Below are positions 8,764 through 46,035 of a stretch of DNA of 52,929 bases, piece by piece (the first letter of the stretch is position 1; each line of letters starts with the position of its first letter). The stretch is taken from the IMG/VR virus record IMGVR_UViG_3300046689_000296, positions 1 through 52,929 of that record. The stretch is one strand, 5' to 3'. The DNA comes from a virus. Below the pieces are notes generated by a model, which was not told the DNA's origin, searched no databases, and saw nothing but the letters and a program-made list of their open reading frames with translations. The position numbers and the translations under genes are program-made.

Positions 8764-8782
8764 ATTTGGTCAATTTAAGAGT

Positions 8783-8808
8783 GCGACTGTACCAGAACAT
8801 GTACCAGG
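8783..8808. repeat. Putative integrase arm-type sites, right arm
   Basis: GCGACTGTACCA and CATGTACCAGG, two copies of the TGTACCA core. The 12-mer GCGACTGTACCA also occurs at 8623 in the left arm. Confidence 0.6.
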
Positions 8809-8837
8809 TCGGTCGCCATACCAAAAGGAACCGAAAC

Positions 8838-9848
8838 GTGGCGACATACCAGAAACGCGGCGAGAGCTGGCGCGCAATCGTGCGCAAAGCTGGACACAAA
8901 CCGATCAGCGCGTCATTCAACACGAAACCGGAGGCGGTGGCGTGGGCGACGGCGACAGAGGCAAAACTGAACGAAGGCGGTCAGGTGGTCGACGACAACA
9001 CTGTCACCCTGCCAACCGTTGCCAGACTGCTGACCCGCTATGCGCTCGAGGTTAGCCCGACCAAGCGGGGCGAGCGGTGGGAGGTGATGCGACTCGAAAT
9101 GCTGGCGCGAAACTTCCCGGTGTTCCAGAAGCCGCTTTCTAGGTTCTCGCCGCAAGACGTCGCCGACTGGCGCGATGATCGGTTGCGCGTCGTTTCTGCG
9201 TCATCGGTCAATCGTGAACTTAACCTGATCTCGGCTGTTTTCACGACTTCGATCAAAGAATGGCGCATGCCGCTCAAGGAAAACCCGGTGCATCTGATCC
9301 GCCGGCCAAAAAGCGCGCGCCCGCGTAAGCGCCGGGTCGACAATACCGAAGTGCAGACGATCTGCAACGCGCTCGGTTGGGATATGAAAGCCACGCCGGA
9401 AATCTCAAAGCATCTGATCGCGTGGTCGTTCGCATTTGCCGTCGAGACAGCCATGCGCCGCGGCGAGATCCTGAACATCAGGCATCGCGACGTGAACATC
9501 GCAGAGCGCTATATCCATCTGCCACAGACCAAGAATGACGACGCGCGCAATGTGCCGCTGTCGTCGCGCGCGGTCGATCTGCTGTCGTTGCTCGCAAAGG
9601 GAAAGCCGGACGACCATCTGGTGCCGGTGAATGCTGGATCGTTCGACACGCTTTTCCGCGAGGCGAAAAAAAAGGTCGGCTTGACCGACCTACATTTTCA
9701 CGACTCACGCCGCGAAGCCGCGACGCGCATGTCTAAGTTGCTGCCGAACGTTTTAGAACTGTCGGCGGTGACAGGGCACAAGACCCTGAAGATGCTGCAA
9801 ATCTACTATGAGCCGAAGGCGACGGACATCGCCGCCAAGCTCGGCTAA
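8838..9848 (+). CDS. int: Tyrosine-family site-specific integrase
   Basis: 336 residues from GTG 8838, chosen for AAAAGGAA upstream and because MATYQKRGESWRAIVRKAG is the usual start of the Arm-binding domain. The core-binding domain spans about residues 60-150. The catalytic set is visible: Arg in ETAMRRGEIL, His-x-x-Arg in HDSRREAATR, His in VTGHKTLKML and the nucleophile Tyr in QIYY. It catalyses attP-attB recombination. Adjacent features are the tRNA-derived attP core (8678-8695), arm-site repeats and a convergent excisionase-like gene whose stop overlaps by 4 bp. Confidence 0.93.
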   Translation: MATYQKRGESWRAIVRKAGHKPISASFNTKPEAVAWATATEAKLNEGGQVVDDNTVTLPTVARLLTRYALEVSPTKRGERWEVMRLEMLARNFPVFQKPLSRFSPQDVADWRDDRLRVVSASSVNRELNLISAVFTTSIKEWRMPLKENPVHLIRRPKSARPRKRRVDNTEVQTICNALGWDMKATPEISKHLIAWSFAFAVETAMRRGEILNIRHRDVNIAERYIHLPQTKNDDARNVPLSSRAVDLLSLLAKGKPDDHLVPVNAGSFDTLFREAKKKVGLTDLHFHDSRREAATRMSKLLPNVLELSAVTGHKTLKMLQIYYEPKATDIAAKLG

Positions 9849-40751: not shown

Positions 40752-42311
40752 ATGCCTATTTATCAGAGTGGGGCGCTCAATGTTAGCGCGCTCAACGCGC
40801 CGGGCGTCTACCTGCAAATCCAGCCGCCGCCGCCGATCATCAACGGCGTGGCGACCAACCTGCTCGGCCTTGTCGGCGTCGGCTCGTGGGGTCCGGTCAA
40901 CAGCGCAACGCTGATTGGCTCTGGCAACGATCAGGCCAACTGGCTCGGCTCGCCCCAGGTTCGCAAGTATGACCTGTCGACCGCCGTGCAAGTCGCGCTT
41001 GCCGCTGGCTCGAACGCGATCATGTACGTGCGCGTCACGGACGGCACCGACATCGCTGCATCGTGTCTCGTCAAAGACACCGCAGGCACCGTTACGGGCC
41101 TGACGCTGACCGCGCTCTACACCGGCACGATCGGCAATACGCTCACCGCGGCGATCACGACCGGCACGGCGCCGTCGAGCTTCAAGCTCACGCTCACGCG
41201 CCCCGGCTTCACTCCGGAAGTGTTCGACAACGTGACGGGTACTGGCGCGGCGCTGTGGACCGCATTCGCAAGCGCAGTGAACAACGGCCTGTCCGGAGTC
41301 CGCGGCCCGTCGCAATTGTTCGTGGCAACGGTCGGATCGTCCACCGCGGCACCGGGCACGTCGGCTACGTTCACGGCAACGGGCGGCACTGACGGCACCG
41401 CAAGCATCACTGATGCGGCGCTGCTCGGCACTGACGGCACCAGCACGACGCGCAAGGGCATGTATGCGCTGCGCAGCTCAGGCGTGCAGGTCGCAACTCT
41501 CGTCGATCACACCGACTCGACCGCATGGGGTTCGATTGCATCGTTCGCACTGAACGAAGGCATCTACTTCGGCGTGCAAGGCCCGGCTGGCGCGTCGTAT
41601 TCGACCGTCTCCACCAGCCTGAACACGGCCGGCGCTGATACCTACGCGCTGAAGGTGTTCGTCGGCGACTGGATCTACTGGCAGGACGGCACGAACAACG
41701 TGCAACGCCTGCTCGGCCCGACGACCTTCTGGGCGCCGAAGCAGGCCGCAATGGCTCCGCACCTGTCGAGCCTGAACGACGCCATGTTCGGTATCGCCAG
41801 CACGCAGCGCGTCTCGCAGAAGAACGCCTACAGCATGGCAGAAATCGGCCAGGTCGCAACGTCGCGACTCGATGTCATCACGAACAACTCGCCGGGCGGC
41901 AATTACTTTGCCTGCCAGACCGGACGCAACGCATCAAGCAACGCAGCGATCTGCGGCGACAACTACACGCGCATGACGAATTACCTTGCGCTCACGTTGG
42001 CTGCTGCATTCGGCTATGTCATCGGCAAGCCGCAGACGGACACGCTGCGCAATGAGGCGAAATCGGCGATCCAGTCGTTCCTCGGCAACCTGTGGAACAT
42101 CGGCTACATCGGCGACGTGAACAACCCGCAGGCGGTGCCGTACACGGTCGTGCTCGACAGCACGAACAACACCGATCAGGCGGTTGCAAACGGCTACATG
42201 ACGGCAAACGTCGCGGTCAAGTACCTGTCGATCGTCTTCTACTTCGTCATCAACCTGCAAGGCGGCCAGACGGTCACGATCAAGTCGTCGAGCAGCGTGT
42301 CGGCAGGCTAA
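40752..42311 (+). CDS. Tail sheath protein
   Basis: 519 residues. NAPGVYLQIQPPPPIINGVA, NLLGLVGVGSWGPVNSATLI is the N-terminal block of contractile tail sheaths; an Ig-like insertion (TGLTLTALYTGTIGNTLTAA) follows. The C-terminal half has RNEAKSAIQSFLGNLWNIGY and ANVAVKYLSIVFYFVINLQG, the end of sheath domains that embrace the tube. This gene is the main reason to call the particle a myovirus. Confidence 0.92.
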   Translation: MPIYQSGALNVSALNAPGVYLQIQPPPPIINGVATNLLGLVGVGSWGPVNSATLIGSGNDQANWLGSPQVRKYDLSTAVQVALAAGSNAIMYVRVTDGTDIAASCLVKDTAGTVTGLTLTALYTGTIGNTLTAAITTGTAPSSFKLTLTRPGFTPEVFDNVTGTGAALWTAFASAVNNGLSGVRGPSQLFVATVGSSTAAPGTSATFTATGGTDGTASITDAALLGTDGTSTTRKGMYALRSSGVQVATLVDHTDSTAWGSIASFALNEGIYFGVQGPAGASYSTVSTSLNTAGADTYALKVFVGDWIYWQDGTNNVQRLLGPTTFWAPKQAAMAPHLSSLNDAMFGIASTQRVSQKNAYSMAEIGQVATSRLDVITNNSPGGNYFACQTGRNASSNAAICGDNYTRMTNYLALTLAAAFGYVIGKPQTDTLRNEAKSAIQSFLGNLWNIGYIGDVNNPQAVPYTVVLDSTNNTDQAVANGYMTANVAVKYLSIVFYFVINLQGGQTVTIKSSSSVSAG

Positions 42312-42863: not shown

Positions 42864-43247
42864 ATGGCGAAACTAACTGTCAAGCAGCAGGAAGCAGGCG
42901 ACACGCCGAGCGCCGCGATCGTCAAGCAGGCTGCTCAACGTGTCGTAGTCGAATCGGCCAACGGGCACACCATCGCGCTCCAGAAACCCGGCGTCCTGGC
43001 GCAATTTCGCCTCGTGAAAATCCTCGGCAAGTCCGCGGAGAACACGGTCTATGTGCAGATGGTTCTGCCGATGACGTATGTCGTAGAGATCGACGGCGTG
43101 CCGGTGAATCAGCCGAACAGCGAGCGCGAGATCGAGGCGCTAATCACGCGCCTGGACGAAGAAGGCGTCGCCGCGGTAATGCAGGGCGTGTCGGAGAACT
43201 TCGGCGCGCAAAGCGCTGATGACGTGCGAGACGAAATAAAAAACTAG
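42864..43247 (+). CDS. Tail assembly chaperone, 0-frame product (G-like)
   Basis: 127 residues. KPGVLAQFRLVKILGKSAEN, MVLPMTYVVEIDGVPVNQPN, LDEEGVAAVMQGVSENFGAQ. The 3' end GAAATAAAAAACTAG contains the slippery heptamer A-AAA-AAC at 43238-43244, in the frame required for -1 shifting (ATA AAA AAC). Lies between tube and tape-measure genes, the usual place of a G/GT pair. Confidence 0.85.
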   Translation: MAKLTVKQQEAGDTPSAAIVKQAAQRVVVESANGHTIALQKPGVLAQFRLVKILGKSAENTVYVQMVLPMTYVVEIDGVPVNQPNSEREIEALITRLDEEGVAAVMQGVSENFGAQSADDVRDEIKN

Positions 43248-43426
43248 TCCGGTCGGTTCCGATCAGCGAAGCGCTCTGGCTGGTGAAAAACGGCGTCCCG
43301 TTCGACGTTGCGTTCGCTCTTGACGATGCGACGCGCGCAGCGTTCGCAATCAAGTTCTCGGAATTCGAAGGGCACAAGTTCAACTTCGAGAATATGGCAT
43401 TTGACGATCCACCGAAACCATCATGA
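43244..43426 (+). CDS. Tail assembly chaperone, -1 frame extension (T-like; GT fusion)
   Basis: No good start codon lies in this frame at its 5' end. After a -1 slip at 43238-43244 translation continues LVRSVPISEALWLVKNGVPF, ending at TGA 43424-43426, which overlaps the next ATG. The fusion would be about 187 residues. The second part has SEFEGHKFNFENMAFDDP, a pattern seen in T-domain extensions. Chaperones of this type coat the tape measure before tube polymerisation. Confidence 0.8.
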   Translation, partial: LVRSVPISEALWLVKNGVPFDVAFALDDATRAAFAIKFSEFEGHKFNFENMAFDDPPKPS

Positions 43427-43914
43427 GCGAATTCACCAGTCTCGGGCAGTTCGCGCGGCACCTTGCCACGCTCGAAGTCGCAGTGGCGCTTGAATTGCGC
43501 CGCGGGCTTGATGAGGTGGCGACGGCCGTGCGCGACAAGGCGAAAGACGAAATCGGCTCGTATCAGGCCGCAATCGGACCTTTCCCGGCCTGGGCAAAAC
43601 TCGCTGAATCTACGGTCGAAGATCGCGCAGCAAAAGGATACTCGCCCGATGAGCCGCTGTTGCGGACGGGTGAAATGCGCGATTCGATCGGGAAGGATGT
43701 TTCTGGCCTTGAGGCGACTATCGGCTCGACGAGCGACATCGCCGTCTATCAGGAACTCGGGACCGACAAGATCCCGCCGCGCCCTTTCCTTGGGCCGGCT
43801 GTGCTGCATAACGAAGCGCTGATAAAGCGCATCCTCGGCAAAGCATTCGTTGCCGGGTTGTTGGGGCGGGGCAACTTGCCGCCTTCGCTCGGATATGACA
43901 CGAAGATCGACTAG
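43423..43914 (+). CDS. HK97 gp10-like tail-completion/morphogenesis protein
   Basis: 163 residues. ELRRGLDEVATAVRDKAKDE, FPAWAKLAESTVEDRAAKGY, SPDEPLLRTGEMRDSIGKDV and GTDKIPPRPFLGPAVLHNEA are the blocks of gp10-like proteins, which complete tails at the head junction. In most phages it precedes the sheath, so its place after the chaperone is unusual. ATGA-type overlap with the frameshift product. Confidence 0.75.
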   Translation: MSEFTSLGQFARHLATLEVAVALELRRGLDEVATAVRDKAKDEIGSYQAAIGPFPAWAKLAESTVEDRAAKGYSPDEPLLRTGEMRDSIGKDVSGLEATIGSTSDIAVYQELGTDKIPPRPFLGPAVLHNEALIKRILGKAFVAGLLGRGNLPPSLGYDTKID

Positions 43915-44153
43915 CCGGTAATGAGCGACCAGGCAATCAGGCATAGCAGTGCAAGCACGATGCCGCCGATTGCGAGGCCGCCAAGGCTTATCAGGATGGT
44001 GTCGACACGGCTCCAGAACGGCATCGCATGAGCGAATCGAATCGGCGCCCGCAACTTGCCGGCGTCAGTAGTCGCCCGTATCGACGGGTACTGGACGGAA
44101 TCAAAGCGATCCGCCGCCCACTCATGCAGGCGATATTTAAGAGAGCGTTTCAT
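43911..44153 (-). CDS. Antisense small membrane protein inside the tail operon
   Basis: 80 residues from ATG 44153. MKRSLKYRLHEWAADRFDSV, then a long hydrophobic helix (TILISLGGLAIGGIVLALLC). It is on the strand opposite to all neighbours. The start codon overlaps the tape-measure start base by base (CATG), the stop overlaps the gp10-like stop, and GAAGG is the ribosome site. No promoter recognised. The only gene that explains this 238-bp gap; membrane topology suggests a moron such as an exclusion protein. Confidence 0.6.
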   Translation of the reverse strand: MKRSLKYRLHEWAADRFDSVQYPSIRATTDAGKLRAPIRFAHAMPFWSRVDTILISLGGLAIGGIVLALLCLIAWSLITG

Positions 44154-46035
44154 GTTCGAAGCCTTCAAAATCGGCGTCAAAATTAGCCTGATCAACCATG
44201 CCGCATTGGGCTTGGCTGCACTCGGCAAAGATTTCATGCGCACGGAGGCGCAGGCTGCTGCACTCCAGAAGCGTATCGATAGTATCAACAAACAGGCCAT
44301 GAAGGGCGGCTTGATGCTTGGTCTCGGTGCGGGCATCGCCGGAATGCTCAAAGGCCCGTATGAGCAAGCCAAGAAGCTAGAGCAGGAGCGCCAGAAGTTT
44401 GCTGCGCTGAACCTGTCTTCTTCAGATAATGCCCAGGCGTTCGCTCAGGCGCAGATGCTGGCGCACAAGAACTTAGGTTCGACCATAGCAGACAATATCA
44501 GCCTGATCCGCGATCTGCATACGGCCTTTGGTGATCTGCCGCACGCAATTGGCATGTCTGAGGACTTCCAGAAGTTCTCCATCATGGCGCGCGTGCAGAA
44601 CGACGGCAAGCCAGTAGAAGGGCTCGTCTACAACGCCGTGAAGGCGCTCGAGCACCGCGGCGACCGTCTGACTCAGCATCCTGATGCGATGCGCGACGAA
44701 CTGGCGCGCATGTCTCAGGTGTACACCGGATCGGGCGGAAAGGTTTCGCCAAGCGACTTCTTCCATGCGTCGCAGACCGGCAAGATGGCGTACACCATGT
44801 ACGACAAGGACTTTTTGTATGGTCCTTTCGCTGCATACATGCAGGCCAAGAGCGGGCCGACTGCCGGCACGTCTGGCATGACGGCGTTTAGCTCGCTCGT
44901 CGGCGGCCACATGGATAACAAGGCAAAAGGCTTCCTCGCCTCGCTCGGCTTGCTGCAGATCGGTGTCAGCCCTGATCAAGTCAAACTGATCAACGAGTCG
45001 ATCAACAAGCTGCCTCTCAGCGCGAAGGAAAAGGCGAATCTTCGAAAGGCTGAGATGCCCGTCACTGGCGGGCTGCGGTCAGACCTCATTTCGCAGTTCT
45101 CGCATCGCCCGGATCAGTTTGTACAAAACGTGCTGGCGCCTGCTATCCGCAAGCGGTACGGCATGGATCTGAGCAATGAGCAGGTCGCGGAAATGCTGGC
45201 GTCGAAGTTCAACCGCTCGACCGGCGACTTCCTCGGCGAATTGATCGTCAACGGGATGAAGTTCGCGAAAGACTCGAAGATTTTCGGCAACGCCAAGGAC
45301 TATTCGAGCGGCTATCAGCAGTACATCAAGTCACCTGAAGGTGCGGAGATTGCAGCTGAAGCAGCGTGGACCAACTTTCTCGCCTTGTTCGGCTCTGTGT
45401 ATCTGCCGGTCATCACCGGCGGCCTGCTGAAGCTGGCTGGCGCACTCGATAGCCTGTCGCAAATGGTGGAGAAGCATCCGGCCATTTTCCGGGCGTTGTC
45501 GTATGCGCTGATCGGCCTGTCGGGCGCGCTGATGTTCCGCGGCACGGTGCTGATATTGACTGCGGCGCTGCGCGGGCTCGGTCTCGCGATGACCATGCAG
45601 GCTGCCGGCGGGGTAGTTAGATTGGCGCGCATCACGGCGATGATCGGCGGCGCAAGCAAGTTCTCGCTGTTCGGCGCTATCGGCATGCTGGCTAATCCCA
45701 TCGGCATTGCGGTGCTTGCTATCGGCACGTTGGCCGCGGCTATCTACGCGTTCCGGCCGATCAGCCAGTCTGAAGTCGACGGCGTAAAGACTGACGGCGG
45801 CGTCAAGTTGTCGGCCGGCGCACAGGCGCGCATCGATGCTGGCGCGCTCGGCAACGGCCCGAACGTGCGCACCGGCGGCGGCGCTCCCAACGTGACCGTT
45901 CACGCGGTCATGGACGGCACACCGATTCACACGAAGGTCGTCAATACCATCGTGCGCAAGACAAGTTCATCGCTCGGAACCGGCTTCTTCGACCCGAACG
46001 CCTCGCCGATCAACCAATTCGTAACCGGACACTGA
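44152..46035 (+). CDS. Tape measure protein
   Basis: 627 residues from ATG 44152; upstream codons lie over the antisense gene. A helical N-terminus (MFEAFKIGVKISLINHAALG, then FMRTEAQAAALQKRIDSINK), Gly-rich hydrophobic segments (AGLMLGLGAGIAGMLKGPYE; GSVYLPVITGGLLKLAGALD), and a C-terminal IAVLAIGTLAAAIYAFRPIS. Length sets the tail length; at roughly 1.5 Å per residue about 94 nm is expected. Confidence 0.88.
   Translation: MFEAFKIGVKISLINHAALGLAALGKDFMRTEAQAAALQKRIDSINKQAMKGGLMLGLGAGIAGMLKGPYEQAKKLEQERQKFAALNLSSSDNAQAFAQAQMLAHKNLGSTIADNISLIRDLHTAFGDLPHAIGMSEDFQKFSIMARVQNDGKPVEGLVYNAVKALEHRGDRLTQHPDAMRDELARMSQVYTGSGGKVSPSDFFHASQTGKMAYTMYDKDFLYGPFAAYMQAKSGPTAGTSGMTAFSSLVGGHMDNKAKGFLASLGLLQIGVSPDQVKLINESINKLPLSAKEKANLRKAEMPVTGGLRSDLISQFSHRPDQFVQNVLAPAIRKRYGMDLSNEQVAEMLASKFNRSTGDFLGELIVNGMKFAKDSKIFGNAKDYSSGYQQYIKSPEGAEIAAEAAWTNFLALFGSVYLPVITGGLLKLAGALDSLSQMVEKHPAIFRALSYALIGLSGALMFRGTVLILTAALRGLGLAMTMQAAGGVVRLARITAMIGGASKFSLFGAIGMLANPIGIAVLAIGTLAAAIYAFRPISQSEVDGVKTDGGVKLSAGAQARIDAGALGNGPNVRTGGGAPNVTVHAVMDGTPIHTKVVNTIVRKTSSSLGTGFFDPNASPINQFVTGH

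What the first reader, a model, noticed from the sequence alone, without database searches (positions are those of the whole stretch)
43911..44153. Antisense membrane gene embedded in the tail operon
An 80-residue single-pass protein is encoded opposite to the late genes. Its start and stop each overlap neighbouring start and stop codons, so it fits exactly. Late transcription would produce its antisense, suggesting expression in the prophage state.
Basis: partly seen in the sequence, partly recalled or inferred. Interest (0 to 1): 0.65.

Follow-up and report, generated by a model that had tools for sequence, protein, structure and literature searches.

The report
Conserved antisense membrane gene beside tape-measure gene
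A small membrane-protein gene sits backwards inside the tail-building genes of this temperate phage and is kept at that spot, always backwards, in dozens of very different relatives, so it is a real gene, most likely one that a resident prophage uses to stop related phages from injecting their DNA.

Summary
The 80-codon minus-strand ORF exactly fills the gap between the neck gene and the tape-measure gene (TMP), sharing CTAG at the stops and CATG at the starts. It is under strong purifying selection (dN/dS about 0.14; no other frame behaves so). It belongs to an unnamed family: 67-92 residues, N-terminal motif R..EW.AD....VQYP, one C-terminal transmembrane helix, predicted cytoplasmic N-terminus. 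Of 80 viral contigs found through the neck protein alone, 56 carry a recognisable member and 9 a similar antisense membrane ORF at this spot; 8 lack it, neck abutting TMP; no sense counterpart was found. Prophages in Ralstonia-family genomes carry it at the same junction. No Pfam, NCBIfam or PDB match. Best reading: a prophage-expressed 'reverse moron' that blocks DNA injection by related phages, like HK97 gp15 (next to TMP) or P22 SieA (antisense, next to its target gene 16), though homologous to neither. Expression and exclusion are inferred: no clear promoter was found in the window, and co-variation does not single out TMP. The arrangement is known in kind; the family and its near-obligate antisense placement look new.

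The parts
43911..44153 (-). small membrane-protein gene (80 aa), the finding
44085..44132 (-). family motif, residues 8-23 RLHEWAADRFDSVQYP; end of the predicted N-terminal helix (5-16) followed by conserved VQYP
   Evidence: alignments A3, A4; model
43935..43997 (-). transmembrane segment, residues 53-73 (predicted helix 46-79), short C-terminal tail
43911..43914 (.). CTAG shared by the two convergent stop codons
44151..44154 (.). CATG shared by the two divergent start codons
   Evidence: same overlap in 41 of 63 members
44162..44166 (-). GAAGG, likely ribosome-binding site, inside TMP codons 4-5
   Evidence: sequence
44260..44310 (-). TMP codons 37-53 with the highest synonymous conservation in TMP (0.88 against a TMP mean of 0.60); candidate location of the small gene's promoter or operator (suggestive only)
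43423..43914 (+). neck / tail-completion gene (phrog_26), flank
44152..46035 (+). tape-measure gene (phrog_28), flank and proposed target
8766..9848 (+). tyrosine integrase (phrog_1): the phage is temperate by gene content

Best explanation
The ORF is a true gene of a family with no entry in the libraries searched: a reverse-oriented moron of contractile-tailed temperate phages of Burkholderiaceae and relatives (shown by conservation and context). It makes a small inner-membrane protein with a conserved, cytoplasm-facing N-terminal helix and motif and a C-terminal transmembrane helix (predicted). Most likely it is transcribed in the lysogen from a promoter lying inside the 5' part of the tape-measure gene, and its protein blocks genome injection by related phages at the inner membrane, where the tape measure or another injected component meets its host partner (inferred). 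When the late operon is switched on, opposing transcription and the complementary RNA would silence it, so the phage's own progeny are not hindered (inferred).
For: Purifying selection on the minus frame only. Same place and orientation in all 33 loci first examined (some near-duplicates) although flanking proteins fall to 24-60% identity. In 80 contigs found through the neck protein: 56 antisense family members, 9 antisense related or similar ORFs, no sense counterpart, and 8 without the gene with neck joined to TMP, so it is an accessory insertion at one spot. Prophages in bacterial genomes carry it at the same junction. Integrase in the window. Predicted single-pass, with more positive charge on the N-terminal flank in 58 of 63 members. 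Several loci pair the membrane ORF with a signal-peptide ORF on the same strand (L130, L136, L141, L148, L149, L157, L160, L161, L165), pointing to work at the inner membrane and periplasm. Distances of the small protein track chaperone, neck and TMP, including TMP's far end, but not tube or gpD. [quoted passage not shown] P22 sieA, antisense and directly beside gene 16, in which escape mutations arise (PMC10883804).
Against: No expression data. No sigma-70 match in 43700-44500. Coupling with TMP is not distinguishable from coupling with the adjacent neck gene (bootstrap interval of the difference spans 0), and in some close relatives TMP differs much more than the small protein (L005: TMP 82%, small 99%). 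One genome holds two 99.97% identical copies of the region 50.7 kb apart, which does not suggest strong self-exclusion, though duplication or assembly could explain it. No sequence relation to gp15 or SieA. In genome G232 two members lie divergently, away from any recognisable neck or TMP gene, so the family is not strictly tied to TMP.
Confidence: 0.5

Rival explanations
1. A lysogenic-conversion moron with another benefit: the protein alters host envelope physiology or blocks unrelated phages (for example by masking a host inner-membrane protein), not specifically injection by related phages.
For: Accessory gene at a tolerated insertion spot; signal-peptide partners and other cargo at the same spot, such as Arc-type repressors in L143 and L158; two members outside the tail context in G232; coupling with TMP is not specific.
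Against: Near-exclusive placement beside TMP over very large divergence suggests a relation to tail or injection function; a general fitness gene could sit anywhere.
Confidence: 0.25
2. A lytic-cycle factor made from the minus strand: a membrane protein, or a transcript complementary to the TMP start, that tunes late expression, tape-measure amount or tail assembly.
For: The gene's leader must run through the start of TMP, so its transcript is complementary to the TMP start; TMP codons 37-53 are unusually conserved at synonymous sites.
Against: Selection is on the protein (dN/dS about 0.14), so RNA alone cannot explain it; 8 of 80 relatives and phage phiKX1 do without the gene, so it is not needed for tail assembly.
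Confidence: 0.15
3. A chance open frame in GC-rich DNA with no protein product.
For: Many long antisense ORFs occur in this window.
Against: Frame and protein conserved across dozens of relatives down to about 25% identity, third-position-biased change, near-invariant motif.
Confidence: 0.01

Closest known systems
HK97 gp15 moron (superinfection exclusion)
   Same: Small predicted membrane protein encoded directly beside the tape-measure gene; accessory; acts against DNA injection.
   Different: gp15 is in sense orientation and followed by an annotated putative terminator, has its hydrophobic stretch at the N-terminus, belongs to a phage with a non-contractile tail, and has no sequence relation (hhalign probability about 1%).
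P22 SieA
   Same: Inner-membrane, prophage-expressed, encoded antisense within the late region directly beside gene 16, a gene in which escape mutations arise.
   Different: SieA is 164 aa, lies in a larger immunity region with spacing and an annotated promoter, belongs to a short-tailed phage; no sequence relation.
HK97 gp23 'reverse moron'
   Same: Moron on the strand opposite to the tail genes.
   Different: Other site (between tail genes I and J), with an annotated terminator; sequence relation not tested.
SNIPE membrane nuclease
   Same: Membrane-located defence associated with tape-measure proteins at injection (PMC13190303).
   Different: SNIPE is a nuclease with a DUF4041 domain; the present protein is too small for an enzyme domain, and PADLOC gave only a marginal hit of one member (E 0.0065) to a generic '2TM' effector model.

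Membership tests
Moron (accessory gene inserted between conserved phage genes) | Present in some relatives and absent in others at the same junction | tested here: met
   56+9 of 80 with, 8 of 80 with neck joined to TMP; phiKX1 annotation leaves no room for it
Moron (accessory gene inserted between conserved phage genes) | Own promoter and terminator, expressed in the lysogen | tested here: inconclusive
   No promoter-like site and one chance-level terminator-like site in 43700-44500; modest family-wide promoter excess; no expression data
HK97 gp15 family | Sequence similarity to gp15 | tested here: not met
   hhalign probability 0.96%
HK97 gp15 family | Small membrane protein encoded next to TMP | tested here: met
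P22 SieA family | Sequence similarity to SieA | tested here: not met
   hhalign probability 0.3%
Superinfection-exclusion proteins | Blocks infection or DNA injection when expressed | not testable with these tools
   needs a cloned copy and challenge phages
Pfam / NCBIfam / PHROGs / PDB families | Significant match | tested here: not met
   12 members (A3) against Pfam, PHROGs and NCBIfam: nothing convincing, best PHROG E 0.0018 for one member; profile A4 (32 members) against PDB sequences: none

The most novel reading that the evidence does not exclude
A dedicated exclusion locus in which the prophage's injection-blocking membrane protein is encoded on the back of the operon of the injection machinery it targets, so that late transcription itself switches the immunity off; its N-terminal recognition part and its periplasmic partner are exchanged while site, orientation and membrane anchor are kept.
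Probability: 0.3. Interest if true: 0.7.

Novelty: new variant of a known kind. Interest (0 to 1): 0.55.

Why it matters
It adds an unannotated protein family carried by most members of a large group of contractile-tailed phages that has almost no isolated representative in the phage records searched. Antisense genes of this size are easily dropped in annotation. If the exclusion reading is right, orientation against the late operon can itself act as the switch that confines an immunity gene to the lysogen, tape-measure-associated exclusion extends to contractile tails, and natural presence/absence and exchanged N-terminal parts give a ready comparative set to map what is recognised.

Tried and rejected
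Chance ORF: rejected by dN/dS and simulations. RNA-only function: rejected as the sole explanation by selection on the protein. Homology to gp15, SieA, known families, viral or PDB entries: none (the viral fold search of a two-helix model had a best E of 4.9 and is uninformative). Known isolated phages: no match to the small protein or to the DNA of the region in 50,697 records; only phiKX1/phiKX2 share the neck protein over most of its length with contractile-tail context (39%), and phiKX1's annotation leaves no room for the gene. Specific co-evolution with TMP: an early set of 40 suggested TMP above neck, but the set of 37 with bootstrap did not separate them, so it is not claimed. Promoter: no sigma-70 match in the window; the first family-wide comparison used other TMP stretches as controls, which may differ in composition, so the shuffle-based one is used. 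The idea that TMP begins MFEA(Y/F)K because of the antisense ribosome site was dropped: loci without the gene have the same TMP start. Distribution: in a phylum-wide sample of 398 only the reference genome itself matched, with few candidates scored per genome, so absence is soft.

Full report
Observation. The minus-strand ORF 43911-44153 encodes MKRSLKYRLHEWAADRFDSVQYPSIRATTDAGKLRAPIRFAHAMPFWSRVDTILISLGGLAIGGIVLALLCLIAWSLITG. It fills the space between a neck/tail-completion gene (phrog_26, 43423-43914) and the tape-measure gene (phrog_28, 44152-46035) of a contractile-tail operon (sheath 40752-42311 and others). The convergent stops share CTAG, the divergent starts share CATG.

Is it a gene? 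A scan of viral contigs with the protein gave 18 relatives at 46-100% identity; with alignments, 31 and then 46. In eight window-like sequences the minus frame has no stop, variable sites fall mostly on third positions (27/14/57), and summed dN over summed dS is 0.14; every other frame has a stop in at least one relative and ratios of 0.31-3.2. Randomly mutating the window sequence by the observed number of differences kept the frame open in 10-15% of runs but never kept as many residues as observed. The gene is real and protein-coding.

Family anatomy. Aligned members share a short N-terminal helix with R..EW.AD and then VQYP, a variable linker, often a juxtamembrane MP...R, and one C-terminal transmembrane helix. 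AlphaFold (32-sequence alignment, mean pLDDT 84, pTM 0.45) gives helices 5-16 and 46-79. In 63 members (67-92 aa) none has a second strong hydrophobic segment, and the 20 residues before the hydrophobic core are more positive than the tail after it in 58, which predicts a cytoplasmic N-terminus. A second class without the EW/VQYP motif but with a similar membrane half (L129, L135, L144, L154, L141, L148, L160, L161, L165) occupies the same spot; profile-profile comparison links the two (probability 96.7%), although similarity of membrane segments can be partly compositional.

Context. In all 33 loci first examined (some near-duplicates) the gene lies on the strand opposite to the tail genes, between neck and TMP where the contig reaches, while neck, TMP, sheath and others fall to 24-60% identity. 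To avoid choosing loci by the gene itself I collected 80 loci by the neck protein: 56 have an antisense family member, 9 an antisense membrane ORF of class 2 or similar, 8 have neck directly followed by TMP, 6 are otherwise, and 1 contig ends too early. Of the 6, L144 has a class-2 ORF in antisense next to TMP, L143 and L158 have antisense Arc-type repressor ORFs, and L164 looks joined. The only membrane ORF in sense inside such a gap is a 113-aa one in L144. Many loci are related, so these are not independent events. The palindromic fit of the window is frequent but not universal: CATG start overlap in 41 of 63, 4-nt stop overlap in 35, both in 25. In bacterial genomes, a sample of 300 from the family of Ralstonia sp. 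TCR112 gave 12 genomes with 14 hits: ten hits (nine genomes; one of them, in G010, a frame of only 48 codons) lie at the neck-TMP junction with both neighbours recognised, an eleventh (G268) has neck and TMP beside it on a longer stretch, two form a divergent pair elsewhere in G232, and one (G118) is a spurious hit in a long ORF. In a phylum-wide sample only the reference genome matched.

Mechanism. Shown: a conserved, protein-coding, accessory gene, antisense to late genes, in a phage with an integrase. Predicted: inner membrane, N-terminus in the cytoplasm. Inferred: expression in the lysogen and a block of injection. In the antisense position late transcription runs over the gene in the wrong direction, so it is best expressed when the late operon is silent. 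Its promoter would have to lie within TMP. No sigma-70 consensus match was found in 43700-44500; across 42 members the best upstream promoter-like score exceeds dinucleotide shuffles by 1.4 bits on average (Wilcoxon p 2e-5, members not independent); and TMP codons 37-53 (44260-44310) have the highest synonymous conservation of TMP (0.88 against 0.60 overall), although some sheath windows are as high. This is suggestive only.

Target. Pairwise distances of the small protein correlate with those of chaperone, neck and TMP (rho 0.31-0.43), weakly with the gene after TMP (0.16), and not with tube or gpD; TMP's C-terminal part is coupled more strongly than the gene just after it (bootstrap interval 0.03 to 0.45), but TMP and neck cannot be separated. 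So the gene travels with the chaperone-neck-TMP block; specificity for TMP is not shown.

Comparison. HK97 gp15 lies directly before TMP, and HK97 also has an annotated 'reverse moron', gp23. P22 sieA is antisense and directly beside gene 16; SieA is an inner-membrane injection blocker with escape mutations in genes 16 and 20 (PMC10883804). On this reading the present family works like these but is homologous to neither of the two tested. SNIPE shows that tape measures are within reach of a membrane-bound defence during injection (PMC13190303).

Verdict. Real and conserved; ordinary in being a moron, unusual in the tightness of its antisense fit and in its retention at one junction over great divergence. 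Function not shown. Interest 0.55; new variant of a known kind.

Noticed in passing
L007 1942-2600; L031 5346-6002: A homing-endonuclease-like ORF (GIY-YIG and NUMOD3 in L031) is inserted between the small gene and TMP and recreates the CATG overlap with the small gene's start.
   Followed up: partly
neck-TMP junction of L130, L136, L141, L148, L149, L157, L160, L161, L165: A second antisense ORF with a signal-peptide-like start, of several unrelated kinds, accompanies the membrane ORF; three tested had no Pfam match.
   Followed up: partly
L143 (neck end +59 to +394), L158 (neck end +15 to +464): Antisense Arc-type ribbon-helix-helix repressor ORFs occupy the same junction, recalling the immI region of P22.
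   Followed up: partly
window 43238-43426: Slippery AAAAAAC just before the stop of the 127-aa ORF and an open -1 frame up to the neck gene: a probable programmed -1 frameshift of a tail-assembly chaperone.
   Followed up: partly
L188 8593-9164 (G232:C145): Two divergent members of the family in a region without recognisable neck or TMP genes.
   Followed up: partly
G146:C1 about 1285688 and 1336428 (L176, L186): Two 99.97% identical copies of the region 50.7 kb apart, perhaps a tandem prophage.
   Followed up: no
window 44260-44310: Peak of synonymous conservation in TMP codons 37-53, including the palindrome TATCGATA.
   Followed up: partly
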